Shown in pieces: positions 42,431 to 64,000 of a DNA stretch of 64,000 nucleotides; within the stretch, counting starts at the first letter, position 1; each line of letters begins with the position of its first letter. The DNA is taken from positions 1 through 64,000 of the forward strand of contig CDMY01000484.1 in NCBI GenBank assembly GCA_001179505.1, read 5' to 3'. The DNA comes from Vitrella brassicaformis (Eukaryota; Sar; Vitrellaceae). The position numbers were made by a program, and so were the translations under genes. The notes below the pieces were generated by a model that was given only the letters and a program-made list of their open reading frames with translations, did not search any database and was not told the DNA's origin.

Positions 42431-42470
42431 CTTGTGACCCTAACCGACTTATCGGTAATTCTTGTCTACA

Positions 42471-47800: not shown

Positions 47801-47828
47801 CACGGAAATTTACACAGGACGGTTAAAC

Positions 47829-48045
47829 TGCTAACGGACAGTCTCTAAAAGAGAGACTGGACGGGGTTTAGTGCTAACGGCCGTGTAACGCAGGGATGTG
47901 GAGAGATAGGGCAAGCCTGTTAACGGACAGTGGAAAAGGGGACGGGGCTTGAAGGACAATGGAATGTGGAGGGATAGGGCAAACTTATTAACGGACAGTG
48001 GAAAACTGGACGGGGCTTGAAGAAAATGGAATGAATGGTGGAATG
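47829..48045 (+). repeat. Three tandem units of about 60-90 bp at the host/element border
   Basis: Each unit carries TAACGGACAGT, GGACGGGG(C/T)TT and (in the first two) TGTGGAGRGATAGGGCAA. Units start at about 47829, 47919 and 47987; the first has an extra internal segment with TCTCTAAAAGAGA. The composition is host-like; AT-rich sequence starts just after, at about 48.1 kb. Confidence 0.75.
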
Positions 48046-48282
48046 GGTGGAAAAATGGAAGGGCAAGGAGGAGGGGAGAGGGAAAGAAAAAGATGGAGTA
48101 TGACAAATCGTATATATTCTACTTTCAATATTCTATGAATTAAAAAGTCATACCAATATAGATGTTTAATAATTTGATTCAACAATTGAAAAAAAATAAA
48201 AATACAAATAATGATAATAGTAATGATGGAAAAATACTTTACCAGTTTTATTTAAAGCGTCTGAAAAATGCGAAAATAAAAG

Positions 48283-48323
48283 ATGCGGAGCAGGTGGCTC
48301 GGCGGATAGAGCGTGCAGTCAAT
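48283..48323 (+). pseudogene. tRNA 5'-half-like fragment inside the element border
   Basis: GCGGAGCAGGTGGCTCGGCGG followed by ATAGAGCGTGCAG looks like a tRNA acceptor strand, D-arm and start of an anticodon stem, but the sequence turns into A/T repeats without a T-arm. It is a GC-rich island in AT-rich DNA. It may be captured host sequence or the broken insertion target. Confidence 0.4.
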
Positions 48324-48341
48324 ACAAAAATGAAATGAAAA

Positions 48342-48382
48342 TAATTATATATAAATTAATAATTATATATAAATTAATAAAT
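48342..48382 (+). promoter_or_regulatory. AT-rich tandem repeat with TATATA upstream of the ATPase
   Basis: Two copies of a 21-bp unit, AATTATATATAAATTAAT plus AATA-like linker, end just before ATG 48386. The TATATA in each matches the motif found before most genes of the element. Confidence 0.55.
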
Positions 48383-48385
48383 GAG

Positions 48386-49048
48386 ATGCACGAAAAAATA
48401 CGGAACTGCCGAGAGCTATTCAATAAGATCGCTAACGAGAAGAAGTGCTGGATACTGTTAATTACGGGAAGAATTAATACGGGAAAGACCCTGATTGCAC
48501 TATCATTATATCGGTATCTGCGGGATAGGAATAAGTTTGATGATGAGCTTATAGTGACGGTGCAACCTGAATTGTGGTTAAAGAATGGCGTGAAGCGTCA
48601 TAAGGTTTTGACCAAAGTAACAGAAGAGCAAATCAAGGCGTTAGCGGAACATCAAGAGAAGACAAAGAAGCGAAGACGAGTGCTTTTAATACTTGACGAT
48701 AGTATTGCTACGATGGACGACACGAGAAGTAAAGAATTTGAGAGATTACTTACTATTGTTAGACATATGAATGTCAGTATTGTTCAGATAAGTCAGTCTG
48801 TAAAAAGAGTATCAACATTAATAAGAAGCATTTATGATTTTGCATTTTTATAACGCCAATGTGGCCATGGTAGTCTGGCAATTCTTCACGAAGAGATATT
48901 CAATGATGGCAAAAAAAAATCAGAATTTTATAAGTATTTTGATAATGCAACAAATAATTATTGTTTTGTTTCAGTAAATGCACGTAGTCCAAACACAGAA
49001 ATAAAGGAGAATTACTGTGATTATAAATCGTTTGGGATTATAGAATAA
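48386..49048 (+). pseudogene. FtsK/HerA-type (A32-like) packaging ATPase with in-frame TAA
   Basis: In viruses of this class this ATPase pumps DNA into the capsid. The preferred start is ATG 48386 (MHEKIRNCRELF); an upstream in-frame ATG at 48335 lies in AT repeats. Walker A is LITGRINTGKT and Walker B is RRVLLILDDSIATMDD; SIVQISQSVKRV is a plausible sensor region. A TAA at 48851-48853 stops the frame, but the same frame goes on for 64 codons (CGHGSLAILHEEIF ... KSFGIIE) to a TAA at 49046-49048, and this stretch looks like the natural C-terminus. So the gene is one substitution away from a full-length frame of about 220 codons. It converges on the next gene with one base between them. Confidence 0.75.
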
Positions 49049-49049
49049 A

Positions 49050-50006
49050 TTAACGTGGGACTTGTAGTAGCGGTTGTATGTTATCTCCTATTCTTGGCCC
49101 TCTTGTCGTTCTGTGTGTCGTTGGTGGCTGATAGGCTGGTGCAGGAGGGTTCCATTCAGGTGGAATATTAAGCGGTGGCTCTGGTGCAGGAGGTGGTATT
49201 TGTCTTGGTCCTGTTTCAGGTTCTGGTTCATAATTGGGTGGAAAATTAGTTGGTGGTTCGGGTGCTGGTTCGGGTAATGCAGGAGGTGGCGGTTCAATTG
49301 GTTCAGGTTGCGGTTCAAAAGGCGGTTCTTCTAATGGTTCAGGCAAACCTCCATCAGCGGGAGGAAGTTGAGGTGGAGGAGGAGGTGGTGGTGGTTGCTG
49401 TGGAGGTGGAATATAGCGATGATTAATTAATTGATCTTGTATTTCATCAGTATCCGCAACTTTAAGAACCTCTTGAACAGATAAATCAACATTAGCATTC
49501 TTACCCAAGAATTTTTCAAAAAATGATTTAATGGTTGGATTATTTAAATCTGATGAATAAACATTAAAGCCATTATCTCTACTATTTAATGCACCTTTAA
49601 GTATATCATTTCTTTTAAGTATATTCATGAAAGCATCAAGTTTGTTTTCTTTATTAAGTTCATTCACATTAACAAGCAAAGCACGATTATCTTTAAAATT
49701 ATAGAAGGTATCTTTATCCCAAGTAAATCCTTTTTTCTTGTCAATGGGAGGGAAAGTAAATAGCATTTGTCCTTCTTCTAGTTCAGGTGGTATGTCAGTA
49801 ACTTTGTGTAGACTAAATAAAGGTGCTTTTGTTTTTGGTAATAAATTTTCAGCCTGTGATTTAAGATAATCTAGGCCAGCATCATAATTTTCTCGCTCTT
49901 CATCATTCATTCCCCAGTACAAATCGTGTAGTTCTTTTAATTGTGTTGAATTATTAGTCATGTTATAAATGGTTTGAAAAAGTGTATCCTCAGTAAAAGC
50001 ACTCAT
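49050..50006 (-). CDS. Proline-rich structural-type protein of the element
   Basis: 318 codons. The N-terminal 200 residues are an ordinary hydrophilic domain (MSAFTEDTLFQTIYNM, later LDYLKSQAENLLPK) with no family I recognise. The C-terminal 115 or so residues are Pro-rich, beginning IPPPQQPPPPPPPPQLPP and continuing with PEPxP repeats, ending QPLLQVPR. Pro-rich tails are common in virion accessory proteins, but no function can be assigned. It is preceded by TATATATTTATC and stops one base from the ATPase end. Confidence 0.75.
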   Translation of the reverse strand: MSAFTEDTLFQTIYNMTNNSTQLKELHDLYWGMNDEERENYDAGLDYLKSQAENLLPKTKAPLFSLHKVTDIPPELEEGQMLFTFPPIDKKKGFTWDKDTFYNFKDNRALLVNVNELNKENKLDAFMNILKRNDILKGALNSRDNGFNVYSSDLNNPTIKSFFEKFLGKNANVDLSVQEVLKVADTDEIQDQLINHRYIPPPQQPPPPPPPPQLPPADGGLPEPLEEPPFEPQPEPIEPPPPALPEPAPEPPTNFPPNYEPEPETGPRQIPPPAPEPPLNIPPEWNPPAPAYQPPTTHRTTRGPRIGDNIQPLLQVPR

Positions 50007-50040
50007 ATTCTATATATTTATCTCTTTATTTTTTTTTTGC

Positions 50041-50607
50041 CTACTGTCGCTGGTTTATCAGAGCTTGACCAAGACGCAAGTTCGGGTCATTATAAGTTTG
50101 TCTCTGTGTCTGCATGGCTAATTGACTTAATTTATCAGGCAGTAGTTCGTTATACATTTTAAGTTCAGCAGAGGCGATAGGGTTAATAACAGCCTGTGCC
50201 ATAGATACAGCTTCACTTTCAGTATATCCAAGTCTCATAAATTTAGTAATGTAGTATATTTTGACACTTTTAATGTATGACCGAATACGGATAAGTTCAT
50301 TGAGTTTATTAGTTAAATAACCTTGTGGTTGAGTAACAGAACGAATATAATTGGTCAACCGAATAATTTGTTTGTCAATATTCCCACTGTCATTAACAAT
50401 GGGTTGAGCGTGATAATCAGCATTTGCATGACCCAATCCTTGCATAATATTATACAACTCACTATCTTGAATTCCATGAGGTTCAATTGTGCTGTCTCTG
50501 GTTGCTCTTGCTGTCTGACCCTGACGCACTACTGGACGTAATTGACTTACTGCATTGACAAGACCCTGAGGATTAATTTGAGTTGCTGCTGGTAGTGCTG
50601 CTGCCAT
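50041..50607 (-). CDS. Hypothetical protein of the element (188 codons)
   Basis: MAAALPAATQINPQGLVNAV start, mixed helical sequence with SELYNIMQGLGHANADYHAQ and a Gln-rich C-terminus (LAMQTQRQTYNDPNLRLGQA). No recognised domain. It lies between the Pro-rich protein and the capsid gene on the same strand and has TATATATA just upstream, so it is expressed like its neighbours and may be a virion component. Confidence 0.75.
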   Translation of the reverse strand: MAAALPAATQINPQGLVNAVSQLRPVVRQGQTARATRDSTIEPHGIQDSELYNIMQGLGHANADYHAQPIVNDSGNIDKQIIRLTNYIRSVTQPQGYLTNKLNELIRIRSYIKSVKIYYITKFMRLGYTESEAVSMAQAVINPIASAELKMYNELLPDKLSQLAMQTQRQTYNDPNLRLGQALINQRQ

Positions 50608-50673
50608 CTCTACTTAATTAAGTTGTATATATATTTTTATAAAAAAAATAATTAATTGTATTCAGTTTAATAT

Positions 50674-51927
50674 TCACTGCAAAATAGTTAATTGACCTGA
50701 CGAAGGGACGCATTGAAGTAGTTGGTAACTATAATTTACAATATGAATTGTGTAATCTTCTGCTGTTGGAGAGTCAAACGATACCGATATTCTCTCATTC
50801 CCAGTCAATTTTTTGTAGCCAAAGCTAGATCCTGACAAAAGTGCTATTGGTGCCCGAGTTGAGAAAGAAAAGAAATAAGTATTCGGATTTTCAAGAAACG
50901 AGCTATTTCGTAGGTATTTATCAAAGTATTCATATGCCATGACACTTCTCTTAAATGCACTGTTGACTTCACTGGCATATGATATGATATTACCTGAACT
51001 ATCTTTTAGAACAAAACTTTTAATTGCTACATTATTATCAATTATATCATCACCAGTAGGTGAAGGTTTAGTAATGTAAAATAGAATAAATGCAGAACAT
51101 GAAGTAAAGTTAATGTATTTATCCAGCCAATCAGTGGTTCCAATAGGAATGTGCATCTGGGCTCGCTCTGGAAGCAGAATACGGTAATGCTTGATATTGC
51201 GATTGGCAAGGATTGCGGACTTAATTGACTTGTTAAAGTCTTGGAAAAAACACCAGAGACGGCAGGATTCAATACCTCCGCCAGTTGGAGACGTCCCGTC
51301 ATAAACAAAACTATCATCAAGGCTTCGGAACTTAACAACAATACGCAATTTTCCTTTTAGGAACATAAGGGGAAGGTCAGTGTTAAAGAAGACGCTACGA
51401 AGTGGAAGGTAATATGTCAGTCTACTGTTCGTGTTATCGTCTGCTCTCTCCACTGCTGTCCCCATTCCAGCGAATGTATTAATTGTATCCAATGCTTCCG
51501 AAGCATGTGATAAAGCGATCGCCCAGTATAAATCTTCCCCATGAAAAACCTTTAACATATGAGTTCCATTGCCACTAAAAATTGTGACTTGGTCAATAAA
51601 AAGAGGTACTTTATTGTAATACAATCCATTAGCAGTGCCTCCTGTCTGTGAGAGTTGCGACAGTTTTATCTCAAAATAAGCATTCAAAAGCATATAACTT
51701 TCCTCAATTTCCCATACAGCAGTATTGGAAAAATCGGGAGTTCCCGATGTCTTTTCATACACCCTAAATTCTCCCTTATTCCACTGACTATTTGCCGAAA
51801 TATTAGACTTTGCCAGATTGAAGACTAGACCGCTTTTTGATTTCTGCGGAAGATGACGAAATTTATTAAGGGTTGCATCAACATTTTCGGGCATATTCAA
51901 ACTTTTCTGAACAGCAGATTTAGACAT
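50674..51927 (-). CDS. Major capsid protein, double jelly-roll type
   Basis: 417 codons, normal for compact double-jelly-roll capsid proteins of polinton-like viruses. The N-terminus (MSKSAVQKSLNMPENVDATL) is polar. The two beta-rich halves include WEIEESYMLLNAYFEIKL, VPLFIDQVTIFSGNG, then LPLRSVFFNTDLPLMFLKGK followed by LRIVVKF, a strand pair typical of these proteins. The second half ends NERISVSFDSPTAEDYTIHI and NYSYQLLQ. The frame is intact, the only large structural gene here without a lesion. TATATATA at 51961-51968 lies about 34 nt upstream of the start. Assignment rests on strand pattern, length and neighbours. Confidence 0.8.
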   Translation of the reverse strand: MSKSAVQKSLNMPENVDATLNKFRHLPQKSKSGLVFNLAKSNISANSQWNKGEFRVYEKTSGTPDFSNTAVWEIEESYMLLNAYFEIKLSQLSQTGGTANGLYYNKVPLFIDQVTIFSGNGTHMLKVFHGEDLYWAIALSHASEALDTINTFAGMGTAVERADDNTNSRLTYYLPLRSVFFNTDLPLMFLKGKLRIVVKFRSLDDSFVYDGTSPTGGGIESCRLWCFFQDFNKSIKSAILANRNIKHYRILLPERAQMHIPIGTTDWLDKYINFTSCSAFILFYITKPSPTGDDIIDNNVAIKSFVLKDSSGNIISYASEVNSAFKRSVMAYEYFDKYLRNSSFLENPNTYFFSFSTRAPIALLSGSSFGYKKLTGNERISVSFDSPTAEDYTIHIVNYSYQLLQCVPSSGQLTILQ

Positions 51928-51960
51928 ATTGATTTTGGTTTCTCAATATCCGAACGAGGA

Positions 51961-51968
51961 TATATATA
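51961..51968 (-). promoter_or_regulatory. TATATATA motif upstream of the capsid gene
   Basis: TATATATA followed (plus-strand view) by AAAAAATAATAT, about 34 nt before the capsid ATG. The same motif precedes nearly every gene of the element at a similar or shorter distance. Confidence 0.5.
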
Positions 51969-51998
51969 AAAAATAATATAAAAATAATTAATTAATTA

Positions 51999-52487
51999 TC
52001 ACTCAACGGGTGGAACTTCGGGTGCCATCGCTCCCTCTTCAAGTTTTTTTGCTATTTGTTCGCTAATCATATCACCAGCATAATGTGCCACAAAATACAC
52101 CACAACAAGTGAATAATCAGGATCTTTACTAAACAAAAGCTCATTTGCCATTCGTGCGACTACACCCCGTAAAGCACCTACCATTGCTTTATTTTCAAGT
52201 TTCAGATTTAGAAATATCGGGCTCATAAGTAAATCATTTACAACATCTGAATAAGTTGATAGAAGACTGCTTAACCCTTCGTGGACATCTGCTGATAATC
52301 TGAAACCAGCAATATATTTATCTGCTCTTCGCTTTTTATACGGGTTTATTTTACTCAATGACCAGACCAGTGATGAAGTGACCAGACTTTTCATATTCGC
52401 CTTTACAAAAGTTGTTGCAAAATTTGTGTATGAACTTAAAAAATCAAAAGAAGACCCACCTGTTGCTTCTTCTTCTAATGTTGTCAT
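51999..52487 (-). CDS. Hypothetical protein of the element (162 codons)
   Basis: MTTLEEEATGGSSFDFLSSY start; a basic patch NPYKKRRADKY in the middle; a helical C-half (VGALRGVVARMANELLF, VVYFVAHYAGDMISEQIAKK) ending PEVPPVE. No domain recognised. Upstream GTATATAAAA motif is 8-15 nt from the start. Confidence 0.7.
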   Translation of the reverse strand: MTTLEEEATGGSSFDFLSSYTNFATTFVKANMKSLVTSSLVWSLSKINPYKKRRADKYIAGFRLSADVHEGLSSLLSTYSDVVNDLLMSPIFLNLKLENKAMVGALRGVVARMANELLFSKDPDYSLVVVYFVAHYAGDMISEQIAKKLEEGAMAPEVPPVE

Positions 52488-52529
52488 TACAATTGTATAT
52501 AAAATAAAAGAAAAAGATAATTATTTAAT

Positions 52530-52802
52530 TTATGTTATAGTTCTCACACTCTCAAAAATTCCCCACAATCTGATAGTTAATGCGATTCCTACCACAGATA
52601 ATAATACAATTGTAATATACGATAAAAATAACCTGCTTCCATCTCCTTTTCTGGTCTGACTTGGATGAAGTTTCGGAGCGGATTTACTTAACATATTACT
52701 TGTCGTTGCATCTATCGCTTCATAAATTATCTCGTAAATCTGATCCAATACTGGAAGTAAAACTTCTTGTGTGATAAACGACCCGATGCCAAGTGAGGAC
52801 AT
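52530..52802 (-). CDS. Small membrane protein of the element (90 codons)
   Basis: MSSLGIGSFITQEVLLPVLD amphipathic start, a basic SQTRKGDGSR segment, then one clear membrane helix (LFLSYITIVLLSVVGIALTI). Unrecognised. Small single-span proteins like this are common in polinton-like viruses and may sit in an internal membrane or help exit. Confidence 0.7.
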   Translation of the reverse strand: MSSLGIGSFITQEVLLPVLDQIYEIIYEAIDATTSNMLSKSAPKLHPSQTRKGDGSRLFLSYITIVLLSVVGIALTIRLWGIFESVRTIT

Positions 52803-52839
52803 AATATGATTATATTATATGATGAAAAATATTAATTTA

Positions 52840-53643
52840 TTATCCCGCAGTTATACTATACAATTTATAAAGTCTAAAAGCAAGACCTAAACCGAGAATT
52901 GAAGCATAATATCCGACAACCATAAGATAAAGATTTACAAAAGGATCCTTATTATACTCTGGATCGTAATATTGTTTAATACCTGAATATTTACTTAAAC
53001 CCATCATTTTATCAATAAGATGATAGTATAAATGATATGTAAAATCTAAATAATCATACAATAAGTAAAATATTGTAAATAATCCTTTGTTTTTACTGCC
53101 TGACCAGTCAAAGTCTGGTGTGTCATCATCATCAAAAGGGTTATTGTTTTCATAATCAAAATCATCCCCATATTTAGGTATATCGGTCGCATCTCCTTCT
53201 TCTGTCTCATCCCATACTAATTTTCCGTCATCATTACGTATTATTTTTTCTCGTGGTAATGTAGAAAAATCAAAACCATCTACATGAGCATCAGGTGAAT
53301 TTCCAGTTGCCCCTTGAAATTCATTACGCCATTTTTGCGAAACATCAGGAGGGGCGTGTGTATCTACTTTTCTCACCACATCTTTCCATAGTCGTTCGTT
53401 TTCTGCCTTACCGAATTCAAAATTCTCAAAACGCCATATTACGTAATCAGTTCTTGCCATTGGAGGAGCGTAATTAACGTAATCCCAGATAGATATACCA
53501 AGTGCTTCATGACCTTTCATATATTGCTGTTGTCTTGGTGAACTTGTTGGTTCAGAATGAGTCGCCATTAAGGCAATCCAGTTCCAATTTGACCATCTTG
53601 ATCTTATATCTTGTGATGTTTCTGGACTTTCCCACGATGACAT
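52840..53643 (-). CDS. Hypothetical membrane-associated protein of the element (267 codons)
   Basis: The N-terminal two-thirds are soluble and Trp/Asp-rich (SRWSNWNWIALMATHSEP; FDYENNNPFDDDDTPDFDW). The C-terminal third has two hydrophobic segments (LFTIFYLLYDYLDFTYHLYY; NLYLMVVGYYASILGLGLAF). No family recognised. It lies between a small membrane protein and the fibre gene on the same strand. Confidence 0.7.
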   Translation of the reverse strand: MSSWESPETSQDIRSRWSNWNWIALMATHSEPTSSPRQQQYMKGHEALGISIWDYVNYAPPMARTDYVIWRFENFEFGKAENERLWKDVVRKVDTHAPPDVSQKWRNEFQGATGNSPDAHVDGFDFSTLPREKIIRNDDGKLVWDETEEGDATDIPKYGDDFDYENNNPFDDDDTPDFDWSGSKNKGLFTIFYLLYDYLDFTYHLYYHLIDKMMGLSKYSGIKQYYDPEYNKDPFVNLYLMVVGYYASILGLGLAFRLYKLYSITAG

Positions 53644-53656
53644 TATTATATACTAC

Positions 53657-55440
53657 TTAAAATTCTTTACTTCGTGTTGCTGTCTCTTCAAATGTAATAT
53701 GACCATATACTGCTTTTTTTAACTCGTCTATCTGTGCCTGTTGCTGTTGGACACATTTTATTAAAAATGGTATAAGCGACATATATGATATACTTTTGCT
53801 TCCTTCTTCTCCATGCACTATGTCAGGTATTATTTTTTCTACCTCCTGTGCGATTAAACCATACTGCTTTTTTTCGTTAGGATGTTCCCGTAAATCATAT
53901 GAAACAGGGTTTAAGTTAAACATTTTGTTGTAAATTAATAAGGGTTCAATGTTTGTTTTTAAACTTATATCGCTATGAGTTTGATAAGATTCTGCTTGCA
54001 CTTTTCTATTAACCATTAAATGAGTGCCTCCCGCACCACCAGATAAATTAGCATCTGCGTGCTGATTTTCATAACCAATTAAGCACCTAAATAAATCACT
54101 TTCCCATCTACACCTCATATGGAGACCTCTGGTGACCGCATCATCAGTATAACTACATGCTAAACTTATACAATATGCTGTGCCTATTCGCCTACCTGCC
54201 ATATGTCCAATGGATACATTCGCTCTTGAACCAGCATACGCACCTTGTCCTATTGCTATGCAGTCCTGACTTTCTGATTGTGCACTTCGTCTTATTGCTA
54301 TATCCTCCCAAAAACCATACGTACTTGCTGGTGTTTTATTGGTTGCTCCTAAACCAATTGCTATTTGTTCGGTATTTTTCTGGACAAAACCCGATGTATC
54401 AGGGATAGATACATTTGAGTTTAATACATCGCTTATTGCTGTGTTATGTAAGTAAAGTTGTTTGCTGGATGGATTACACACACATAATCTATCAGTAGTT
54501 CCTGACCCAGAAGAAACCCCGAATATAACGCTATTAAAAGTTTTTTGTGCCGTAATAGTCTGTGTCGTGTTTGTCGTCATCATGTTGCTAATATTCACAT
54601 TGGAATTCAGGCAGTCCGAGATTTTATAATTAGACCTCAATAAACTTAAATTATCAGTGCTATAAGCATATAAATACCTATTCGCATCAGCATAACCAGA
54701 AGAATTTAACCTTAATTGTAAATTACTAAATGTTTTCTGTCCTGTAATATTCTGTGTCGTATCTGTTGTTGCCATATTACTGATATTCACATTCTAATTT
54801 AGGCAGTCAGCGATTGTATGAGTGTATTTTAATATTCTACCATCACTGCTGGAAATACCAGCGATAGGGTGTGCAGTTGAATTTGTAGAATAAGCATTAG
54901 TCATAAATAAGTCTTGTGAAGACCAATTAACCCGACCACTAAATGTCTTCTGCCCCGTTATGGTCTCCGTGCCAGCGAGACTACAATAATCACCCAAGTC
55001 AATCGCATCCACATTGCCTTTCAATATTTCCCAGTCATTAATACTTTTATTTGATGGAATAAGACGATTGTTATTGTCAAAGACACAAAAATGGTTAGTA
55101 GGTTGTGGATTTTGTGGAGCATTTACAATTATATGCTCAAAAGTCTTTTCTCCTGTAATAGTCTGCGGATCTGCAAGATGCATAAAGTCTCCAATTTTGT
55201 AGCTATTAATCGCTAATTGTCCGACTCCATTTAGTGAAAATAGATTATCAGTTTCGGCAGATGAATTAATACGATAATTTACAAAAGAAATTGATGAATT
55301 GTTAAATGTTAAATCACTAAAAGATTATATCTTGTTCTCCTTGTTTTTTTTGATAAAAGTGGTGCTGTGTAAATCCTCACCGAGAGAAGAACCACCTGAA
55401 ACGAATTGCTTACCCCACAGAGACGAAATGGTTGATACAC
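53657..55440 (-). pseudogene. Fibre-like protein with QTITGxKTF repeats and C-terminal S74 chaperone domain, broken by stops
   Basis: The intact C-terminal frame (53657-54790) ends in an intramolecular chaperone/peptidase S74-type domain: SDISLKTNIEPLLIYN, then LREHPNEKKQYGLIAQEVEK and a coiled-coil tail. Such domains trimerise phage and viral fibres and then cut themselves off. Upstream, TAG at 54796-54794 replaces the Ser codon seen at the matching place of the next repeat (DCLN-stop-NVNISNM against DCLNSNVNISNM). The same frame continues to 55183 and beyond. A further TAA at 55327-55325 separates it from a possible N-terminus (QFVSGGSSLGEDLHSTTF). Four repeats share a (T/Q)xTITGxKTF-like motif at DPQTITGEKTF, TETITGQKTF, TQNITGQKTF and TQTITAQKTF. 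No ATG is visible at the 5' end. Likely a receptor-binding fibre; the host target is unknown. Confidence 0.7.
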
Positions 55441-55449
55441 TATATTATA

Positions 55450-56533
55450 TTAAGAAAGAGATAAAATTAATTCATATGGTGTATTCATTTTCAATGCTCT
55501 CCCTTTGTGATCCGCCCAAGATATACGAATTCTACTAACATTCATCGGATAATTAAATGTAATCTCGTTCTCACCACGTCCAAAAACAATAGCAGACCAC
55601 ACATTATCAATCGGTATAATAAAAGATGAAAAAATACTACCATCTGCTGACATAGCATCATAACCACTTTGGTCATTAAACAACATTGTAAGAAAAATTG
55701 TTTTTACGGCAAGATTCACGGAGTTAGGAAGTTTCACACTTTTATTCCATGTTGTTGTCCCCTTGTTTTCAATAAAATTAGCAGGTAATCCTATTAGTTC
55801 AGAATCAAAATTAAATGAGGGATGACGACCATTAATACGAAATGAATAATCATTTTCTGCGCATGCAACGAGAAAGGGACGTCTGCGCTGTCCACATGCA
55901 GCCGACGATGTGACTGCCGGAATCACAAGCGCCTCTGCACTAACTGTGTCTGTCTGCGTGGGGGAGGGAGGGGAGGGTTTGCGGGACTGGGGTGTGCTGA
56001 TGGGGCGGGGATTGATCCCTCCTCCCCTTGAGCCTGTTTGACTCTGCGTGCTGATGGGACTGTATTTGTATGAGTATCACGGACACACAGACGAGTGTTA
56101 CGGTTAATGACAGTTTCTCCCCATAATCATTTTCTTCAACGAAAGTTAAACGATTAGTTAATTCATCTAATTCAATTTTTATATTTTCACTTCTTGAATC
56201 ATCAGTAAATACTTCCTGACTTTTCAACTGAATCGCATTTTGAAGGTCTTTAAGACTATAAAACCCTTCATCTAATACAATACGATAATCTTTCGCTATA
56301 TTTTTATCTACATACGGGTTTTCTGACCATGGAGTTGAAACGACAGGCAAAGTAATAACAAGACAATCATTAACTCCCATTCGGATATTGAAAATACTAT
56401 TTGGAATATTGTATAAAACTAATCTTACTTTTCTTACACCAGTATAAGCATGTTTCAGATTCAACACGAAATTAGAACTATCTATATCTCTGTTCTCATC
56501 ACGATGACTTGAACTAATATATAATAAACTCAT
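55450..56533 (-). pseudogene. Penton-like minor capsid protein, split by a 277-bp insertion
   Basis: The first part starts at ATG 56533 with MSLLYISSSHRDENRDIDSS, then VRKVRLVLYNIPNSIFNIRM and FYSLKDLQNAIQLKSQ, the usual N-terminal pattern of Polinton/PLV penton proteins. It runs in frame to ENDY (56123) and then into GC-richer sequence. The second part, from ENDYSFRING at 55858 onward, ends LKMNTPYELILSLS at 55450. Deleting 277 bases (one 13-bp repeat copy plus the insertion) rejoins the two frames at the same codon position, giving 268 residues, a normal penton size. Whether the transcript is spliced is unknown; otherwise the gene is dead. Confidence 0.7.
55859..56122. mobile_element. 264-bp GC-richer insertion flanked by a 13-bp direct repeat
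   Basis: ATAATCATTTTCT occurs at 55846-55858 and again at 56123-56135, directly bordering this segment, as expected for a target-site duplication. The inside is clearly richer in G and C than the element around it and includes GGGGGAGGGAGGGGAGGG and two GTGCTGATGGG copies. No terminal inverted repeat is evident. On the minus strand it offers GT donors (CC|GTAACA at about 56.10 kb) and AG acceptors (GGACAG|CG, GCGCAG|AA), so it could act as an intron. Confidence 0.65.
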
Positions 56534-56545
56534 GACTATATGTTA

Positions 56546-56731
56546 TTAACGAAAACGTAGAAATAAAAATAAACCAAGTATTACCACACTTCCAAGAATC
56601 ATGTAAAAAAAGAAACTACTTCCACCACTACTTTTAGTCTGTGTTCCTGATCCAACATTTCCCTCACCTTCGGGGTGTTCAGTTAGATTCGTCAATTCGT
56701 CTATAATATCCTGCGAGGGTTGTTCTGACAT
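56546..56731 (-). CDS. Small tail-anchored-type membrane protein (61 codons)
   Basis: MSEQPSQDIIDELTNLTEHP, a Gly/Ser/Thr linker, then a single membrane helix (SSFFFYMILGSVVILGLFLF) and a basic end LRFR. Unrecognised. TATATAATTATATATAATAA lies directly upstream of its start. Confidence 0.7.
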   Translation of the reverse strand: MSEQPSQDIIDELTNLTEHPEGEGNVGSGTQTKSSGGSSFFFYMILGSVVILGLFLFLRFR

Positions 56732-56768
56732 TGTTGTATATAATTATATATAATAAAAAAATAATTAA

Positions 56769-57767
56769 TTATGGAACGTCAGATAGTTTTTTTGTTGATT
56801 TGTAAATATTATTATTGGAATCAATACAGAGAATATTTAAATCAGTTCCTGTGGTTTCAGGAATATTGTTCAAGTCCAGACTTTTAGATATTTTAACATT
56901 TCCATCCGCCATTGCCCAAAACTCGTCGTAAGTCTTACATATAGCGTAATGTGTCCCGAGACCACCGATATAACTATTATTCAATACAGAATTATCGCTT
57001 ACTAAACGCCCGATATGTATTTTATCGTCTATTTTTGTATAATCAGGTAGTAATGTTGCTAAATCACCAATTATAGTGTTAAATATATTACCATCTACAT
57101 AATGCCATATACGATTACTCGCTGTATCAAAACTTATGCCTTGTATATTATCTTCACCAATTTTCAACGGAGATACAGACCCTAAATTTACTACTCTGTG
57201 TTCTTCAAAAATATCATTTAGCTCTACAATAGGCAAGAAATCATTATAAATTCTTACATCTTCAATCAAGCATTCATTATTATTCTGTGTGGATAATTCC
57301 AGTTGTCCTGCGTCGCCAGCGGAGTCAAAAAAATCATTATTAAAGGTTATTCTTTCGTTTTCTAATAGAAAATACTGATCTTCAATATCTACAATCGCTT
57401 TATTTTCATCTATATACACAAAATTAATTTCTCCATTATCGCCGTTATAACTTAACCCCATGAAAAACCAATAATCTTTCGCTGTATTATGAGGAATATT
57501 ACTTGCTGAATTATTAATTTGCTTACTCAAAGCACTATTTCCAGTCCTTAACCATATTCTTTTGTTATTATTATCTACCATGAAACGACGCCAATTAAAT
57601 GTGCTTCCAATATATGTTACTAATTCAATATTTCCACTTCTACTTTCAAGATGCTTAAACCATAAACACCAAGTTAGTTTTTTAGGAGAAGTATTATGAA
57701 TATCTGCTTCTAATCCACGAGCAAAAACCACCTTCTCATTACGAGAAGCAGTTAGAGTAGCACCCAT
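56769..57767 (-). CDS. LamG/concanavalin-like domain protein
   Basis: The start MGATLTASRNEKVVFARGLE at 57767 is preferred over an upstream in-frame ATG (57791) because TATATATATCGT sits just before it. The first 200 residues look like a LamG-type jelly-roll: TWCLWFKHLESRSGN, YIGSTFNWRRFMVDNNNKR, DYWFFMGLSYNGDNGEINFV, ECLIEDVRIYNDFLPIVELN. The C-terminal third has IHIGRLVSDNSVLNNSYIGG. LamG-like folds bind carbohydrate or protein. In a viral setting a surface attachment role is plausible, but this is inference. It resembles the protein encoded next to it and may be a paralogue. Confidence 0.65.
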   Translation of the reverse strand: MGATLTASRNEKVVFARGLEADIHNTSPKKLTWCLWFKHLESRSGNIELVTYIGSTFNWRRFMVDNNNKRIWLRTGNSALSKQINNSASNIPHNTAKDYWFFMGLSYNGDNGEINFVYIDENKAIVDIEDQYFLLENERITFNNDFFDSAGDAGQLELSTQNNNECLIEDVRIYNDFLPIVELNDIFEEHRVVNLGSVSPLKIGEDNIQGISFDTASNRIWHYVDGNIFNTIIGDLATLLPDYTKIDDKIHIGRLVSDNSVLNNSYIGGLGTHYAICKTYDEFWAMADGNVKISKSLDLNNIPETTGTDLNILCIDSNNNIYKSTKKLSDVP

Positions 57768-57796
57768 TACGATATATATATTAAAATACATAAATT

Positions 57797-59265
57797 TTAT
57801 GTTGCGACACTACCTCCTATGCGGTCAGTTACAGAATTTTCACTATCACCAAGGTTTGTAGCACCGCCATTATGAATGAAATTATACCAGAAAAGTGGTT
57901 GCTTACTCATTCCTGATTGATTAATATTTATATCAGTTTTTACTCCGTTTCTATACAGACTACACACTACTAATTTATTATCTTTAATGAATTCTACACG
58001 ATTATCATTAGTGCCATAACATAACAATGCTTCTTTGCTTGTATCATCTAATGGTTTAAATCTAAATGCGAATGTAACTAAATTAAAATTGACTAGTGGT
58101 AAATTACCGATTTCTATACATGAATTTGATGTATTATTTTTAAAATCTAATTCTCTATCATTTACAACATTAATAATATTCACAGGATAAGCAATAACTC
58201 CATCTCTCCATAAAACACTTAATTTCAATACACCATCTTCCACAGCATAGTTAGGCAACTGATTATACGAAAAATAAATGTTTTCTAAATCATTAAGTGT
58301 TACATCAAAATTAACCACATTTTTATCTGATGTTAAACCTAATACTCTACTCTGTTTATCATCTCGTTCAGTTTCAAGATTTTCAAGGTCAGGCACCCGC
58401 CCTAGTCGTTCAACCCCATGCTCTAATCTTTGAAAATTAACTACCGAAGTATGGAGTCTCGTAGAGCAGTAAAAACTACCTACATATGAATGATTAAGTA
58501 ATGAATTACTAGAATTATGCCCGATTTCAATTTGGTTATTGACTGGTATTGTAGGAAAAGAATATGGTAAAGTAATTTTATTTACTACATCTTCTATTCC
58601 TTTATCCAACCGACTTGAATAGCAGTATAAATCATTATTATCCGCATCATAACTAATTCCAATAATATTTACTTCATTCGCTAATAGACCAGTTTTTATT
58701 ACTACTATCTGTGCGTCATCTCTATTCAATCTCACTTTTACTGCGTTGTTTTCCTTAAAAAAATTCAAACATATTGCCATAAGTAAATAACGCTTCTGCT
58801 AAATTTAAGTCAATCGGTTTGAAATAAAAAAACAAAAGTTATGGTTTTCTGTAAATGAAGTGGAAGATTAGAGCATAAAATATAATCTGGTGAAGTATCA
58901 GTGAAATCAATTAAATTATCAGGCGTTATAGGTTTAGATGTTGAAAACTTATTTAATGGATTTATGAAGTGAATAATATCATCTACTTTACCATTTCTAA
59001 ATTTATCTTTCAGTATCAGTTTATCATCCATGATTTCTGTACCCGAAACAGAGCGAAATGAAGCACACAAAGCATCTACTAATACGCCTGTTTTAAATGT
59101 CCTTTTTATTTCGTTATTTTCATCAATAATTGCTATATTATGTTTGTATTCGTCGTAATATTCTATCTCATCTCCTATCTTAATACCTTGTAAATTTTTC
59201 TCTACAAACAGATTATCACACACAATATTATCAGCATCCAACCATTTACTTCTATGACGGGGCAT
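57797..59265 (-). CDS. Second LamG-like protein, broken by two one-base frameshifts
   Basis: ATG 59265 (MPRHRSKWLDADNIVCDNLF), with TATATATTAAATT just upstream. The frame shifts in the 7-base A/T run at 58826-58832 and again in the 7-base run at 58757-58763. In each case one base fewer would keep one continuous frame through FYFKPIDLNLAEALFTYGN, which matches RFKPLDDTSKEALLCYGTND later in the same protein, so the protein carries two related LamG-like units. Other parts include NNQIEIGHNSSNSLLNHSYV and CIEIGNLPLVNFNLVTF. It ends GGSVAT at 57797. Both breaks are at equal-length homopolymers, so a sequencing or assembly error is as likely as real decay. Confidence 0.65.
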
Positions 59266-59284
59266 AATGATATTATATATTAAA

Positions 59285-59866
59285 TTAGATATTCTTATAT
59301 TTTTCTGACAATTCTTTTGTTTTATTTTCACTCGGCGGATTAGTCATTAAATTAGATATCGCAATTTTTATTATTGAAAACATTATTAATCCTACTAATT
59401 TGACATGAGGCGACACTTGTATTAGTTGCAGATTCTCAACCAGTAATGTTCTTAACGCTACACTAATATTTGGGTCATCATGCATTTCTTTTGCTAAACC
59501 ATCAAGTTTTAACCAGTAAAAGCAGGTATTATTTTCTCTATAACTTTACCAAAATTATCAATAATATAGGTAGATGTATCATTTACTGTATTGGTCGCTA
59601 TATTTGCCGAAATTCTGCAATACTCTACTCTATCTTCAAGTTCTTCTTTACTTATATCTTTTTTCAGTTTTGGAAACTCTTTATTTGGAAAAAGTAAGCA
59701 ATAGCTGTCATATTTTGCTTTTAGCATGTCCATTTCTAATGCATCTTCAAGATTAAAAAGACCTCTCGTCTTCATTTATTTTGAGCATATCTGACGTATC
59801 AACATCATCAGTTGATTTCTTAATATCTTCAATTACTTTATCAAGAGCTTTATTACTCCGTGGCAT
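59285..59866 (-). CDS. Hypothetical protein of the element, two homopolymer frameshifts
   Basis: ATG 59866 starts MPRSNKALDKVIEDIKKSTD. The frame shifts in a T5 run near 59.76 kb (into FNLEDALEMDMLKAKYDSY) and in a T4 run near 59.52 kb (into YWLKLDGLAKEMHDDPNISV). The C-terminus has a hydrophobic helix (VKLVGLIMFSIIKIAISNLM) and ends KELSEKYKNI at 59285. Charged helical sequence in the middle, DISKEELEDRVEYCRISANI, is unrecognised. I read it as one protein of about 190 residues because the pieces abut without spacing. Confidence 0.6.
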
Positions 59867-59941
59867 TCCTATATATTATTGTATTTAAGTCTAATTTCAC
59901 TAAGATTTTTTTTGCAAGATTTATATATACAATATTTAACA
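59867..59941. promoter_or_regulatory. Divergent intergenic promoter region
   Basis: ATATAT at 59871-59876 lies 5 nt from the minus-strand start at 59866, and TATATATA at 59922-59929 lies 13 nt from the plus-strand start at 59942. The 75-bp gap has no other feature except a T8 run. Confidence 0.55.
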
Positions 59942-60214
59942 ATGTCAGATATTAATTTAAATCCACCTGTTCCTCCTCCTTTACCTAATATGAACGAAAA
60001 TGAAAGCAATATTGATGATATGATACAGGCGTTAGGTGAAAAACTAAATGCAGAAAACAATGGTAATATCATAAAAAATAAATCATTACTTTCACAACTT
60101 GACTTATCCTCTACAATAAGCACATCATTTGGAGTCATACTTGGAAGTATTATAACTATATATATACTCTACAACTTCTCCAAAAAAAATCATTTCAGTA
60201 TCGCAGAATTTTAA
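59942..60214 (+). CDS. Small membrane protein with Pro-rich N-terminus (90 codons)
   Basis: MSDINLNPPVPPPLPNMNEN, a helical DDMIQALGEKLNAE segment, then one membrane helix (TSFGVILGSIITIYILYNFS) and a short basic tail. Unrecognised. The start follows TATATATACAATATTTAACA. Confidence 0.7.
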   Translation: MSDINLNPPVPPPLPNMNENESNIDDMIQALGEKLNAENNGNIIKNKSLLSQLDLSSTISTSFGVILGSIITIYILYNFSKKNHFSIAEF

Positions 60215-60438
60215 ATTATATGCAACTTTGCTAATTGAATTTCTAATTGTTTCTGCTCTTTGACTAATTCATTATATTTATTAATCAAAGTTGTGTAATT
60301 ATTGAACAATTTATCATAGTCTTCTTTCATTTGCTGATAAGCAACATACTTTGAATATACCATTCTTTGTCTCTCTTTTTGATATTGCCTGTTTTTTTCA
60401 GCATCCCACTTTGGTTTCTTTTTATTATTATTATCCAT
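60211..60438 (-). CDS. Small coiled-coil protein (75 codons)
   Basis: MDNNNKKKPKWDAEKNRQYQ, then heptad-like sequence through YDKLFNNYTTLINKYNELVK and EQKQLEIQLAKL. The basic N-terminus suggests nucleic-acid contact, but no family is recognised. Its stop overlaps the end of the plus-strand neighbour by 4 bases. Confidence 0.65.
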   Translation of the reverse strand: MDNNNKKKPKWDAEKNRQYQKERQRMVYSKYVAYQQMKEDYDKLFNNYTTLINKYNELVKEQKQLEIQLAKLHII

Positions 60439-60472
60439 ATATTTATATATAAGAACTTATACTTCAATATAA
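60439..60472. promoter_or_regulatory. Divergent 34-bp promoter region
   Basis: ATATTTATATATAAGAACTT lies between two oppositely oriented start codons (60438 minus, 60473 plus); TATATAT is at 60444-60450. Confidence 0.55.
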
Positions 60473-60877
60473 ATGTTTTCTCCTGAATTCATAGAACTAT
60501 TTAAGGAAAAGACCGAGAATTTGCAGAAGTTTATTAAAGAATATGTGTATGATAATATAGACAAAGAAAAGTTGGATGAGTTTGTGGTTGGTGAATTACC
60601 TGATCAACTAAAAGAACATGCTAAACAGGAACTCAAACAATATCCTTATGATGAACTATTAGATATGAAAATAACTGATGACTTTGTCAAAAAAAATGTA
60701 ATGAGATGCCGTTTATTTTTAATGATTATATTTCAGCCTATTATCAAAGAAAACAAGTTAGAAGCATACATGGATAAAATACTAAATAATTTAGACGATA
60801 AAGGAGAAAATAAAGACTTTGTTATTAGTAATCTTTGTAAATATATATCCTTTTATTCAGATATTTGTTCAGGATGA
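60473..60877 (+). CDS. Hypothetical protein of the element (134 codons)
   Basis: MFSPEFIELFKEKTENLQKF; highly charged helical sequence with EHAKQELKQYPYDELLDMK, then a hydrophobic RCRLFLMIIFQPII segment. No recognised domain. Its TGA overlaps the ATG of the next gene (ATGA at 60874-60877), so the two are probably translated together. Confidence 0.7.
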   Translation: MFSPEFIELFKEKTENLQKFIKEYVYDNIDKEKLDEFVVGELPDQLKEHAKQELKQYPYDELLDMKITDDFVKKNVMRCRLFLMIIFQPIIKENKLEAYMDKILNNLDDKGENKDFVISNLCKYISFYSDICSG

Positions 60878-61200
60878 GTTGGAATCCGATAGACTGGGGT
60901 AAAGATATAGTATCAGGTAAAGCGCCACAACTGCCTGGAATGGGGGGTAGTCCAATAAGTGGTGGAGGAAGTGATAATCCATTAGAAGATGGTGTGATGG
61001 GAGAAGTAATCAAAGAAATAAGAAAACTTATTGAACCTATTGTAAATAAGATATTAAGTCCTATCCAGAGTATTATAGATGATGTTATTTGTTTTTTTAA
61101 TCAGATATGGGAACTTCTATTATCAATTTTGGGGTTCATATATATAGGTGCTTTACTTGCTTTTGCTGTTTATGCTTCCGCTTTTATTATAATTTTATAG
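60874..61200 (+). CDS. Gly-rich membrane protein (108 codons)
   Basis: MSWNPIDWGKDIVSGKAPQL, a Gly/Pro-rich stretch (GMGGSPISGGGSDNP), an amphipathic helix (EIRKLIEPIVNKILSPIQSI) and a long hydrophobic C-terminus (LLLSILGFIYIGALLAFAVY). The amphipathic helix plus membrane anchor resembles membrane-active minor virion proteins, but this is only a general likeness. It overlaps the upstream gene by ATGA. Confidence 0.7.
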   Translation: MSWNPIDWGKDIVSGKAPQLPGMGGSPISGGGSDNPLEDGVMGEVIKEIRKLIEPIVNKILSPIQSIIDDVICFFNQIWELLLSILGFIYIGALLAFAVYASAFIIIL

Positions 61201-61216
61201 ATATATATTTAACAAA

Positions 61217-61571
61217 ATGGATCTCAGCCTTGGACTTGAAAATATGTTTAAAAGGGGCATTAGATGTCTTATTTGGTCAGTTTTTTAAATTATTAGATCA
61301 GTGGTATAGAGGAGCAATAAAAATATTAGAAACAATATTTGGCACAACTTTTCCAAAAGAAGTAAAAAGTAGGCAAGATTTTACATTAAGTGTTATGACA
61401 ACTGTTATTTTAGCTTTTGTGATTAAGACAAGTTTTCATTATCCGTATTCACGTCGGGCTATAATTAAAGTTCATCATAATCTTCACGCCGTTTCTCTTT
61501 TCTTTCCGTTCTCAATCCAAAACCTTTTTGCTTGGCAAAAGCTCTGGTTCCCATTCGTTGAGGTTGTCTAG
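61217..61571 (+). CDS. Small membrane protein, one homopolymer frameshift
   Basis: ATG 61217 (MDLSLGLENMFKRGIRCLIW) follows TATATATTTAACAAA. The frame stops in the T6 run at about 61.285 kb; one T fewer would lead into KLLDQWYRGAIKILETIFG and a membrane helix FTLSVMTTVILAFVIKTSF. The open frame then runs over the integrase 3' end, which is on the other strand; the true stop in an undamaged copy may be earlier, near 61.46 kb. Unrecognised. Confidence 0.5.
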
Positions 61572-62562
61572 ATTCAGTTATTCTCTGCTCTCGCTCTCGC
61601 CTCTCTTGCGTAGTAATTGGCATAGGTTGAACATTTCTCTCTACTCCCTCTGCATCTACTTTCAATAAATCAGCTCTCATATAAAACTTTCCATTTACTT
61701 TATACGGCATCATTGGCTTATTATCATTGACCTCCTGAATTTCAAATATTTCTTTTGAGAACGTAGGCTTAAATCCTCTGGTAAACACATTTTTTACTAA
61801 TTTGATTCTTACTTTATCACCTTTACTTAATGGTATTTTAATATGCTCTCTGTGTGCTCTCTTAATAATATTCTTCATGACTTCTTCCTGATTTTCCGCC
61901 TTGACAGCATTATTAGGTGCCATTTTAATTGTTGTATGATAAGATGAGTTATAGTTGTTTAATATATCATTTAATATACTGATCCAAGATTTTGAGTTTT
62001 TACTTTTCAGTGCTTTATTCATCATTAATTTAATCGTTCTGTGCCACCGTTCAACAAACACAGACTTACTTTTTGAATTCAGTAATATAATATTATTCTG
62101 TCTACAATATTCGCTAAATTCACCTAAAAATTCACTGCCTAAATCTGAAAAAATATAATTTGGTTTACCAAGTTTTGTCTGTATGACTTTGAATGCTTCT
62201 ACTATTGTTTTTGCCTGTTTATCTTCAATAGGCACAGCCCATGCTTTTTTAGTAAATACATCTATGCAAGTCAATAATCCAATGTGTCCATTATTGAGAC
62301 GAGGGTTAGGCAAAAAAACAAGGTCAATCTGGAATTCAAAGCGTTTGTGTGGAGCAATAAAACTAAATCCTTTTGCTCGTGTAACTTGAGTATAAGTTTG
62401 CTGTATCTCTTGACGACTTATAAACTCTTTCACATCTTTTAATGTTATACTGGCATCCTGCTGTTTTGCTTTACGATGTAATTGCATAGCAGATTGAAAG
62501 CCTGTTGCAGGAGAGTAATAAATATCTCTTAATATTTTCTTTTGATTATCTGATAGTGGCAT
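61465..62562 (-). CDS. Retroviral-type (DDE) integrase of the Polinton/PLV class
   Basis: 365 codons. The N-terminal region MPLSDNQKKILRDIYYSPAT and the helical segment ITLKDVKEFISRQEIQQTYTQ match the pre-catalytic part of Polinton integrases. The catalytic triad is visible as Asp in FEFQIDLVFLP, Asp in YIFSDLGSEF and Glu in VFVERWHRTIK, with 30 residues between the second and third, slightly shorter than the usual 33-35. The C-terminal part has GDKVRIKLVKNVFTRGFKP and FEIQEVN, a small SH3-like domain, then a basic tail rich in Arg. It inserts the element into host DNA. It is 7 bases downstream of the polymerase stop on the same strand, with TATATAT between. Confidence 0.85.
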   Translation of the reverse strand: MPLSDNQKKILRDIYYSPATGFQSAMQLHRKAKQQDASITLKDVKEFISRQEIQQTYTQVTRAKGFSFIAPHKRFEFQIDLVFLPNPRLNNGHIGLLTCIDVFTKKAWAVPIEDKQAKTIVEAFKVIQTKLGKPNYIFSDLGSEFLGEFSEYCRQNNIILLNSKSKSVFVERWHRTIKLMMNKALKSKNSKSWISILNDILNNYNSSYHTTIKMAPNNAVKAENQEEVMKNIIKRAHREHIKIPLSKGDKVRIKLVKNVFTRGFKPTFSKEIFEIQEVNDNKPMMPYKVNGKFYMRADLLKVDAEGVERNVQPMPITTQERREREQRITESRQPQRMGTRAFAKQKGFGLRTERKEKRREDYDEL

Positions 62563-62569
62563 AATTATA

Positions 62570-64000
62570 TTATATATTTACGTAATTAAAAGGGAACCAT
62601 TCACCAATTACTTCATCAAAATACATTTTGTCAAATGGTGACTTTTTAAATGTTTTCTGTATGTCAGTATATAAAATAGTAAACGGATTGACACCACTTA
62701 AAATTTGATTTTTTGTTCTTCGTGTAGCAATTTTTGTAATTCTCTTATTAAGGTATATTTTTGTTCCTTCATTTTGGAAATACATATCAGATGTTATGTA
62801 ATATTCATCATCTTGTTTCACTTCTATATCACGAAGGTTTATTTTTGAAAAATACGTATCTCTAATACTTTGTTTCTTTCCTGTTTCATACCATTTTCCT
62901 TTTGCGTCTTTCTTTTTTTCAACATATTTTATTTCATCAAAAGTTTTATAACATTCACCTTTCCTTTTTATCGGAAATCCTTTAATTCGTTTCTTCCCGT
63001 TGTCATTAAAACAGATTTCATTATTCATATCTAAATATTCTACAACATAACATTTAGGGCTTTCAAATCGTGCCTTTAATATTAATGCTTCATTATCAAT
63101 ATCATTAGTTAACTCACCTAATTCTACATTCTGAACAATGCATTCAGCTAATTCCTTTCCCACTTCTTCTCTTTGCTTTGCTTTGTTAATTTCTATTTGC
63201 TCTTCTCTTTTATCCTCCTTAACTTTATTTCCATCCTCATCTCTATCATTAATGATTTCTTCTATTTTAAATTTGCCGGATGCTTTTATTTTTGCAAATG
63301 CTTCATAGGTGATATACAGACTATCGGTATCTGTGTAATGAAAAACAGGTTTTTGAAGTGTAGGGTCAATCATTTTCATAAATTGTAACATTATTCGTTT
63401 GGCGTAATCTAATATAAAAGTTCCAATGTATGATGGTTTTGTAATTTTTCTTTTCTTTTCCTTCTTCTGACCTACCACCATTAAATATCCATCTTCCGCC
63501 GTAAGATTATGACTTTGAAATCTATAGTCTCTCCGAAATTCAAGATATTGTCTGTATGAATGTATAATTATTGTTTCTTCCTGATGTGCATGTTGCAAAA
63601 ATTTTCCATATAAAGCATTCATTAACAATTTATACAACGACCTTTTCCCCTTATTTCCCTCCCTACCTGCTTGCTGTTTTTTCTCATATAAAGGTTTGAT
63701 GTAAGATAAAAAGATGTCAGCTTTTTTTTCCCAAATATGGCATTCTTCGCCTTCAACAGATTCAATTTTATAGCCAACGCTCAAAGCATCTTCAATCTGA
63801 ACATTTGTATAATATCCTTTTCCTTCATGTAAATCCCAAATTAATCCATTATTTTTCGTTTTCTTTGCTAATATAGGAACTCTTATATTTTGTGGCGGTG
63901 TGTATTTTATATAATATATTCCCAATTTTCCTTTGTCAAACTCTTGTTTTGGTTCAATAATTTACTGCGTGGACCAATTGGATATTCAAATTTTGACATA
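62570..64000 (-). CDS. Family B DNA polymerase, C-terminal part, one frameshift
   Basis: Polymerase motif B is visible as YKLLMNALYGKF and motif C as FHYTDTDSLYITYE, both in good agreement with protein-primed family B enzymes. KPSYIGTFILDYAKRIMLQF lies between them. A long Lys/Glu-rich thumb with EEIINDRDEDGNKVKEDKRE follows, ending FPFNYVNI at 62570. Upstream, MSKFEYPIGPRSK (read from 64000) shifts frame at an AAA run near 63.962 kb into IIEPKQEFDKGKLGIYYIKY; one extra A would join them. The exonuclease and motif A regions lie beyond the window. It replicates the element, probably from protein-primed termini, which is inferred from the family. Confidence 0.85.

What the first reader, a model, noticed from the sequence alone, without database searches (positions are those of the whole stretch)
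48100..64000. Endogenous polinton-like virus in the host genome
Capsid, penton, packaging ATPase, DDE integrase and family B polymerase lie together in AT-rich, intron-free DNA within a GC-richer, intron-rich genome. The accessory set (S74 fibre, paired LamG-like proteins, many small membrane proteins) may mark a new lineage.
Basis: partly seen in the sequence, partly recalled or inferred. Interest (0 to 1): 0.7.

Follow-up and report, generated by a model that had tools for sequence, protein, structure and literature searches.

The report
Decaying polinton-type virus in alga genome
A stretch of AT-rich DNA in a single-celled eukaryote's genome is the decaying remains of a small DNA virus that once inserted itself there, and an intron-bearing zinc-finger gene sits beside it and beside several of its relatives in the same genome.

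Summary
The finding holds. At about 48.1 kb GC falls from 53% to 33%, and the AT-rich block runs past the window to about 67.7 kb of the 68.1-kb contig. It carries an A32-type packaging ATPase, a viral B-family DNA polymerase, a retrovirus-type integrase, a phage-like S74 fibre, and candidate (unproven) capsid genes. Polymerase plus rve integrase makes it polinton-type in the stricter published sense. The host is probably Vitrella brassicaformis (inference from a nuclear, split form II-like RuBisCO gene).

The element is inserted and decaying. The polymerase lies in several frames, the ATPase ends early, and host-repeat DNA with a 13-bp duplication interrupts the minor-capsid candidate. Eight contigs, this one included, carry related viral pieces. 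Against the best-preserved sister, protein identity ranges from 36 to 96% by gene, with dN/dS 0.05-0.17 in four genes: a mosaic of viruses that were functional when they diverged.

Least expected is a GC-rich, intron-bearing zinc-finger gene at the element's edge. Of seven contigs matched by this gene, six have viral DNA on its 5' side. Cargo, preferred target, or a duplicated old insertion are not separated. Endogenous polinton-like viruses are a known kind.

The parts
48096..64000 (.). AT-rich viral block inside the window; goes on to about 67,720 of the contig
   Evidence: GC 0.329 against 0.528; viral genes; continuation in L001
46801..47529 (-). Gene1: host-like zinc-finger gene beside the viral edge, two exons (47035-47529, 46801-46956) and an inferred GT-AG intron
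   Evidence: ORF; exon 2 by eye and from the blastn match of window 46872-46989 to C29; 8 matches in 7 contigs; no Pfam family. No RNA data
47530..48095 (.). Spacer between gene1 and virus, host-like GC
   Evidence: as a 571-base query it has only two short weak matches elsewhere, in C139 and C29; alignment
48162..48338 (+). Small viral ORF, 58 aa
   Evidence: Translation; stretch conserved in C553, C29 and C139
48335..49048 (+). A32-type packaging ATPase; frame ends early at 48,853, and the rest follows as a separate ORF in the same frame
   Evidence: Pox_A32 8.9e-10; two ORFs; both match the C553 copy
49050..50006 (-). Pro-rich 318-aa ORF, unknown
   Evidence: no Pfam family below 0.01; relatives in C553 and C139
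50041..50607 (-). 188-aa ORF, unknown, 96% to C553
50674..51927 (-). Candidate major capsid protein, 417 aa, uninterrupted here, in two frames in C553
   Evidence: Position and strand pattern by eye only. No hit in Pfam, PHROGs or PDB; model unusable
51999..53643 (-). Three unknown ORFs (162, 90, 267 aa)
   Evidence: 54%, 48% and 36% to C553
53657..54775 (-). Fibre protein with C-terminal S74 chaperone domain
   Evidence: Peptidase_S74 8.4e-13; PHROG tail fibres, best 1.1e-19; no match in C553
54794..55324 (-). Fibre-like ORF with repeated segments
   Evidence: BppL_N 25.0 bits, just under cut-off 25.8; DNA repeats D1 and D3
55450..56542 (-). Candidate minor capsid (penton) gene, interrupted by repeat DNA
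   Evidence: Motif recalled, no database support; ORF pieces on both sides
55850..56130 (.). Piece of a dispersed host repeat (limits rounded), 13-bp duplication on both sides
56546..59343 (-). Unknown ORFs (65, 340, 327, 151 aa)
   Evidence: no Pfam family for the larger three
59285..59775 (-). Unknown gene in two frames here, one ORF in C553
59816..61571 (.). Small ORFs on both strands, some with hydrophobic ends
   Evidence: several match C553
61465..62562 (-). Retrovirus-type (rve) integrase, 365 aa, uninterrupted; C553 copy has a stop inside
   Evidence: rve 9.1e-08, 32.7 bits against 32.6
62570..64000 (-). C-terminal part of the B-family DNA polymerase; the rest lies beyond the window in other frames
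   Evidence: DNA_pol_B_2 matches at C300:63374-63958, 64345-64620, 64633-64881

Best explanation
This is an endogenous polinton-type (polinton-like) DNA virus in the nuclear genome of a protist, probably a photosynthetic alveolate. Shown: its gene set, its continuity with host-composition DNA, related pieces on seven other contigs, low dN/dS against its best-preserved sister, and host-repeat DNA inserted in it. Inferred from the gene families: the virus copied linear DNA with a protein-primed B-family polymerase, packaged it with an A32-type ATPase, bound cells with S74/BppL-type fibres and used its rve integrase to enter the chromosome. Related viruses exchanged modules while still functional, and the copies then decayed in place. 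I see no sign that the host now uses the viral proteins.
For: GC step. A32, S74, rve and PolB_2 above Pfam cut-offs. Related viral pieces on 8 contigs including this one. Host-repeat pieces with 13-bp (C300) and 12-bp (C553) duplications inside viral genes. dN/dS 0.046 integrase, 0.078 188-aa ORF, 0.102 ATPase, 0.172 polymerase C-part between C300 and C553. One 2.5-kb tract is 90% identical in DNA and stops beside a capsid candidate that is only 50-54% identical in protein.
Against: Capsid and penton calls have no database support. rve passes its cut-off by 0.1 bit; the C683 integrase does better (43.0 bits). No cysteine protease and no terminal inverted repeat was seen; the far end is missing. 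Seven IMG/VR scans found no relative. The C553 contig, read whole, has no match to the S74 fibre or the penton candidate.
Confidence: 0.88

Rival explanations
1. Flanking gene, reading 1: gene1 and its spacer belong to the element as terminal cargo.
For: Of 7 contigs with gene1 matches, 6 have viral DNA on its 5' side. The spacer is alike between C320 and the C553 group although the viral modules beside it differ. Gene1 dS between C300 and C553 (1.58) is near that of polymerase (1.21) and the 162-aa ORF (1.45), as if it diverged with the unexchanged parts.
Against: C303 has a shortened gene1 and no viral match in the 9 kb read, of which 3.9 kb is N; gene2 lies at C91 with no viral match in 10 kb. 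GC and intron are host-like. No terminal repeat seen beyond gene1.
Confidence: 0.35
2. Flanking gene, reading 2: gene1 is a host gene family whose 5' region is a preferred integration site.
For: Gene1 has host GC and an intron; viral DNA always lies on its 5' side in the 6 contigs; virus-free copies exist (C303; gene2 at C91).
Against: Nearly no virus-free copy among the matches; PMC8547959 (passages read) reports no sequence-specific integration for related virophages. In C683, gene2 lies between the virus and gene1.
Confidence: 0.3
3. Flanking gene, reading 3: one old insertion beside a gene1 copy, spread by duplication of the locus.
For: C553, C29 and C139 share the whole junction at 76-88% DNA identity.
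Against: C300 has a near-identical ATPase module (dS 0.26) but a far more diverged gene1 (dS 1.58). C320 and C683 carry diverged viral modules.
Confidence: 0.3
4. An intact latent virus whose stops and frame changes are assembly errors.
For: Integrase and capsid candidate are uninterrupted. PMC10120064 (passages read) found that many such stops were assembly artefacts. Low dN/dS.
Against: Host-repeat piece with target duplication inside the penton candidate is not a base-call error; several genes are broken in both C300 and C553.
Confidence: 0.06
5. A contaminant or mis-joined viral contig.
For: The element reaches almost to the contig end, where assemblies often fail.
Against: Dispersed host repeat inside two elements with target duplications; degraded relatives inside long contigs C29 (176 kb) and C139 (121 kb).
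Confidence: 0.02

Closest known systems
Polintons (Mavericks), Polintoviricetes
   Same: B-family polymerase of the organellar/viral type, rve integrase and packaging ATPase together
   Different: No Ulp1-type protease seen among the ORFs scanned; capsids unproven; terminal repeats not reached
Endogenous polinton-like viruses of protists, including those with S74 and BppL fibres (PMC12220804) and the Vitrella element named in PMC12721341
   Same: AT-rich islands, A32 ATPase, S74 fibre, BppL-like segment, nested retroelements, decay
   Different: Zinc-finger gene of host style at the edge of several loci; not found described, but only one paper search addressed it
EMALEs, endogenous virophages of Cafeteria (PMC8547959)
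   Same: Several diverged copies, recombination, retroelements inserted in viral DNA
   Different: No sequence-specific integration was seen there; here 6 of 7 gene1 contigs have viral DNA beside gene1

Membership tests
[quoted passage not shown]
   DNA_pol_B_2 above cut-off; protein priming itself not tested
Polinton (Maverick) | Retrovirus-type integrase | tested here: met
   rve 32.7 bits against 32.6; C683 relative 43.0
Polinton (Maverick) | A32/FtsK-type packaging ATPase | tested here: met
   Pox_A32 38.9 bits against 22.8
Polinton (Maverick) | Double jelly-roll major capsid and jelly-roll minor capsid | tested here: inconclusive
   No hit; model pLDDT 33.8
Polinton (Maverick) | Ulp1-type cysteine protease | tested here: inconclusive
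   No such Pfam hit among the viral ORFs scanned; not every ORF was scanned and the element is incomplete
Polinton (Maverick) | Terminal inverted repeats and 5-6 bp target duplications | not testable with these tools
   Far end not on the contig
Polinton-like virus, strict usage (PMC11071308) | Mostly without PolB and rve integrase | tested here: not met
   Both present; the paper's wording is 'mostly', so this does not exclude the wider usage
Polinton-like virus, wider usage (PMC12220804) | AT-rich insertion with capsid, A32 ATPase, integrase, PolB markers and different GC from host | tested here: inconclusive
   All but capsid met; capsid unproven
Virophage (Maveriviricetes) | Virophage capsid, protease and dependence on a giant virus | not tested
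   No virophage model or helper-virus data was used

The most novel reading that the evidence does not exclude
The viral elements of this genome carry at their edges GC-rich, intron-bearing zinc-finger genes of host style (gene1, gene2, and a zinc-finger/RING gene in C648), shared across diverged element lineages. They would be a module built for expression in the integrated state, for instance to control the provirus or to act on the host or on rival viruses, while the AT-rich, intronless genes serve infection.
Probability: 0.25. Interest if true: 0.75.

Novelty: new member of a known kind. Interest (0 to 1): 0.4.

Why it matters
It describes a mosaic family of polinton-type elements in what is probably a chromerid alga, a photosynthetic relative of apicomplexan parasites (host by inference). 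The held library has one paper with both Vitrella and polinton. If the zinc-finger genes are cargo or a preferred target, they give a handle on how such viruses choose and use their place in a host genome.

Tried and rejected
Relatives outside this genome: seven scans of IMG/VR with single proteins or alignments confirmed none; tblastn against phage records gave none for the capsid candidate and one polymerase ORF. These scans need short conserved peptides and miss distant relatives.

Fold: the single-sequence capsid model was unusable (pLDDT 33.8), so no fold search was run; the gene1 model was also weak (42.6).

RNA genes: no Rfam or tRNA hit in the window. I first took a spot near 48.3 kb for a tRNA-like piece; it is the small ORF. 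A second tRNA-like spot between virus and gene1 was seen by eye only and is dropped.

Host name: two 18S searches failed; RuBisCO was used instead. That nuclear form II RuBisCO points to chromerids or dinoflagellates, and the size of the Vitrella genome, are recalled.

Host use of viral genes: ATPase ORFs in C29 and C139 are shortened, and part of C29 is inverted. dN/dS for C29 is 0.13 against C300 and 0.11 against C553; for C139 it is 0.06 (46 codons), 0.35 and 0.36 against C300, C553 and C29. I do not see a case for domestication, but the low ratio of C29 leaves it open.
Full report
WHAT IS THERE. The window is C300:1-64000 of a 68.6-Mb assembly of 705 contigs; C300 is 68,077 long. GC is 0.528 for 1-46,800 and 0.329 for 48,100-64,000. 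The AT-rich block goes on in L001 (GC 0.287) to about 67,720, where a repeat of GC 0.586 begins and runs to the contig end. As assembled the block is about 19.6 kb and open at the far end.

GENES. From the host side: a 58-aa ORF, an A32-type ATPase, a Pro-rich 318-aa ORF, a 188-aa ORF, the 417-aa capsid candidate, three unknown ORFs, an S74 fibre (PHROG tail fibres), a fibre-like ORF with BppL_N just under cut-off, a penton candidate, further unknown ORFs, the rve integrase and the B-family polymerase. Beyond the window lie the rest of the polymerase and a 316-aa ORF in which I read a vOTU-like stretch by eye (no Pfam support); PMC11071308 (passages read) describes a vOTU domain in such polymerases. 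Two further ORFs there look rich in Cys pairs. The capsid and penton names rest on position and recalled motifs. For the 417-aa ORF Pfam and PHROGs gave no family, PDB one chance hit at E 0.26 and none with a two-sequence profile; for the penton candidate only weak unrelated hits.

HOW BROKEN. The ATPase frame ends early compared with C553, and the rest follows as a second ORF. The polymerase lies in several ORFs and frames in both C300 and C553. The gene at 59.3-59.8 kb is in two frames here, one in C553. The penton candidate is interrupted by a 0.26-kb piece of a host repeat with a 13-bp duplication on both sides; in C553 a 0.45-kb piece with a 12-bp duplication interrupts another viral gene. 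The repeat has 41 listed matches in the genome (176 candidates, 40 scored); pieces also lie in or at viral DNA or contig ends in C320, C327, C648 and C683. The piece in the penton candidate is about 99% like those of C683 and of the C300 contig end, and 92% like that of C327, so this damage looks young. Duplication length suggests a non-LTR retroelement; an ORF beside the C327 copy gave no Pfam support. Integrase and capsid candidate are uninterrupted in C300; both are broken in C553.

RELATIVES IN THE SAME GENOME. Eight contigs hold viral pieces: C300, C553, C29, C139, C648, C320, C683, C327. In the 8 and 10 kb read, C29 and C139 keep only the ATPase end, to the counterparts of window 49.4 and 49.8 kb. 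Against C553, protein identity is 95% for ATPase, 96% for the 188-aa ORF, 89-92% for integrase, 60-75% for polymerase pieces, 50-54% for the capsid candidate, 36% for the 267-aa ORF. Window 48156-50678 is 90% identical in DNA and ends beside the capsid candidate. dS runs from 0.26 (ATPase) through 0.43 (188-aa ORF), 0.91 (integrase) and 1.21 (polymerase C-part) to saturation (capsid candidate and one small ORF); dN/dS is 0.102, 0.078, 0.046 and 0.172 for those four, and 0.245 for the 162-aa ORF. I read this as exchange of modules between viruses then functional. The C553 contig, read whole (25.3 kb), has no match at E 1e-3 to the viral ORFs between 53.7 and 58.8 kb, S74 fibre and penton candidate included; only the repeat piece matches there. 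A 341-aa ORF in C553 holds relatives of both borders of that stretch.

THE FLANKING GENE. Gene1 (46801-47529-) has two exons with an inferred 78-bp GT-AG intron and a C-x4-C-x10-C-x2-C-x4-C-x2-H finger (counted by eye in C300, C683 and C648). A genome search gave 8 matches in 7 contigs: C300, C29, C553 (two), C139, C683, C303, C320. All but C303 have viral DNA on the 5' side. In C139 about 2.4 kb of other DNA lies between; in C683 gene2 lies between. C29 and C139 copies contain stops, and C553 is matched in two pieces of different frame. Exon against spacer identity is 0.885/0.822 (C553-C29), 0.871/0.806 (C553-C139) and 0.851/0.854 (C29-C139); the last pair speaks against constraint in those copies. 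Gene1 dN/dS is 0.23 (C300-C553, 83 codons) and 0.29 (C300-C683, 136 codons) at dS above 1.5. Gene2 has 4 matches in 3 contigs: C327 and C683 beside viral DNA with an alike junction (72% over 953 bases), and C91 without viral match in 10 kb; dN/dS C327-C91 is 0.35. C648 has, beside the ATPase end, a spliced-looking gene with an AN1-like finger below cut-off (21.2 against 27.9 bits) whose outer neighbourhood is 89% like C91. C303 has a shortened gene1 and no viral match in 9 kb, 3.9 kb of it N. C553, C29 and C139 share one junction and are not three independent events. Cargo, preferred target and duplicated insertion remain open; no terminal repeat was seen.

HOST. A RuBisCO gene in several exons lies on a 669-kb contig; the PDB entries nearest to the exon-bearing ORF tested include one named form II. 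From recalled knowledge this points to chromerids or peridinin dinoflagellates, and genome size to Vitrella brassicaformis (my estimate 0.8). PMC12721341 (section 16 and passages read) names a Vitrella element in its capsid tree; I cannot tell whether it is this one.

COMPARISON. PMC12220804 (passages read) reports S74 and BppL fibres and nested retroelements in PLVs; PMC8547959 (passages read) reports retroelements in endogenous virophages, a probable recombinant and no sequence-specific integration; PMC10120064 (passages read) warns that stops can be assembly errors. The viral features are thus known. On the zinc-finger association I ran one paper search (one listing, not read), so I make no claim that it is unpublished.

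VERDICT. A known kind of element, well supported, with one unexplained association worth a specialist's look.

Noticed in passing
window 37491-45455 (+): Repeated host gene pieces: Arylsulfotran_2 at 39408-40193 and Big_5 in two ORFs, with internal DNA similarity: a small tandem family near the element.
   Followed up: partly
window 20970-21521 (+): CAP59_mtransfer-type glycosyltransferase piece (E 1.6e-26).
   Followed up: no
L008 against L016: The polymerase stretch is inverted relative to its neighbouring viral segment between C320 and C327.
   Followed up: no
L016 2257-4083: A Ty1/copia-type reverse transcriptase (RVT_2, 1.2e-31) lies directly beside gene2 in C327.
   Followed up: no
window 55.85-56.13 kb; L001 4223-4577; L002 2.67-3.11 kb; L017; contig ends of C320, C648, C683: The same host repeat recurs in or at viral DNA. 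Many listed copies also sit at contig ends, so an enrichment is not shown.
   Followed up: partly
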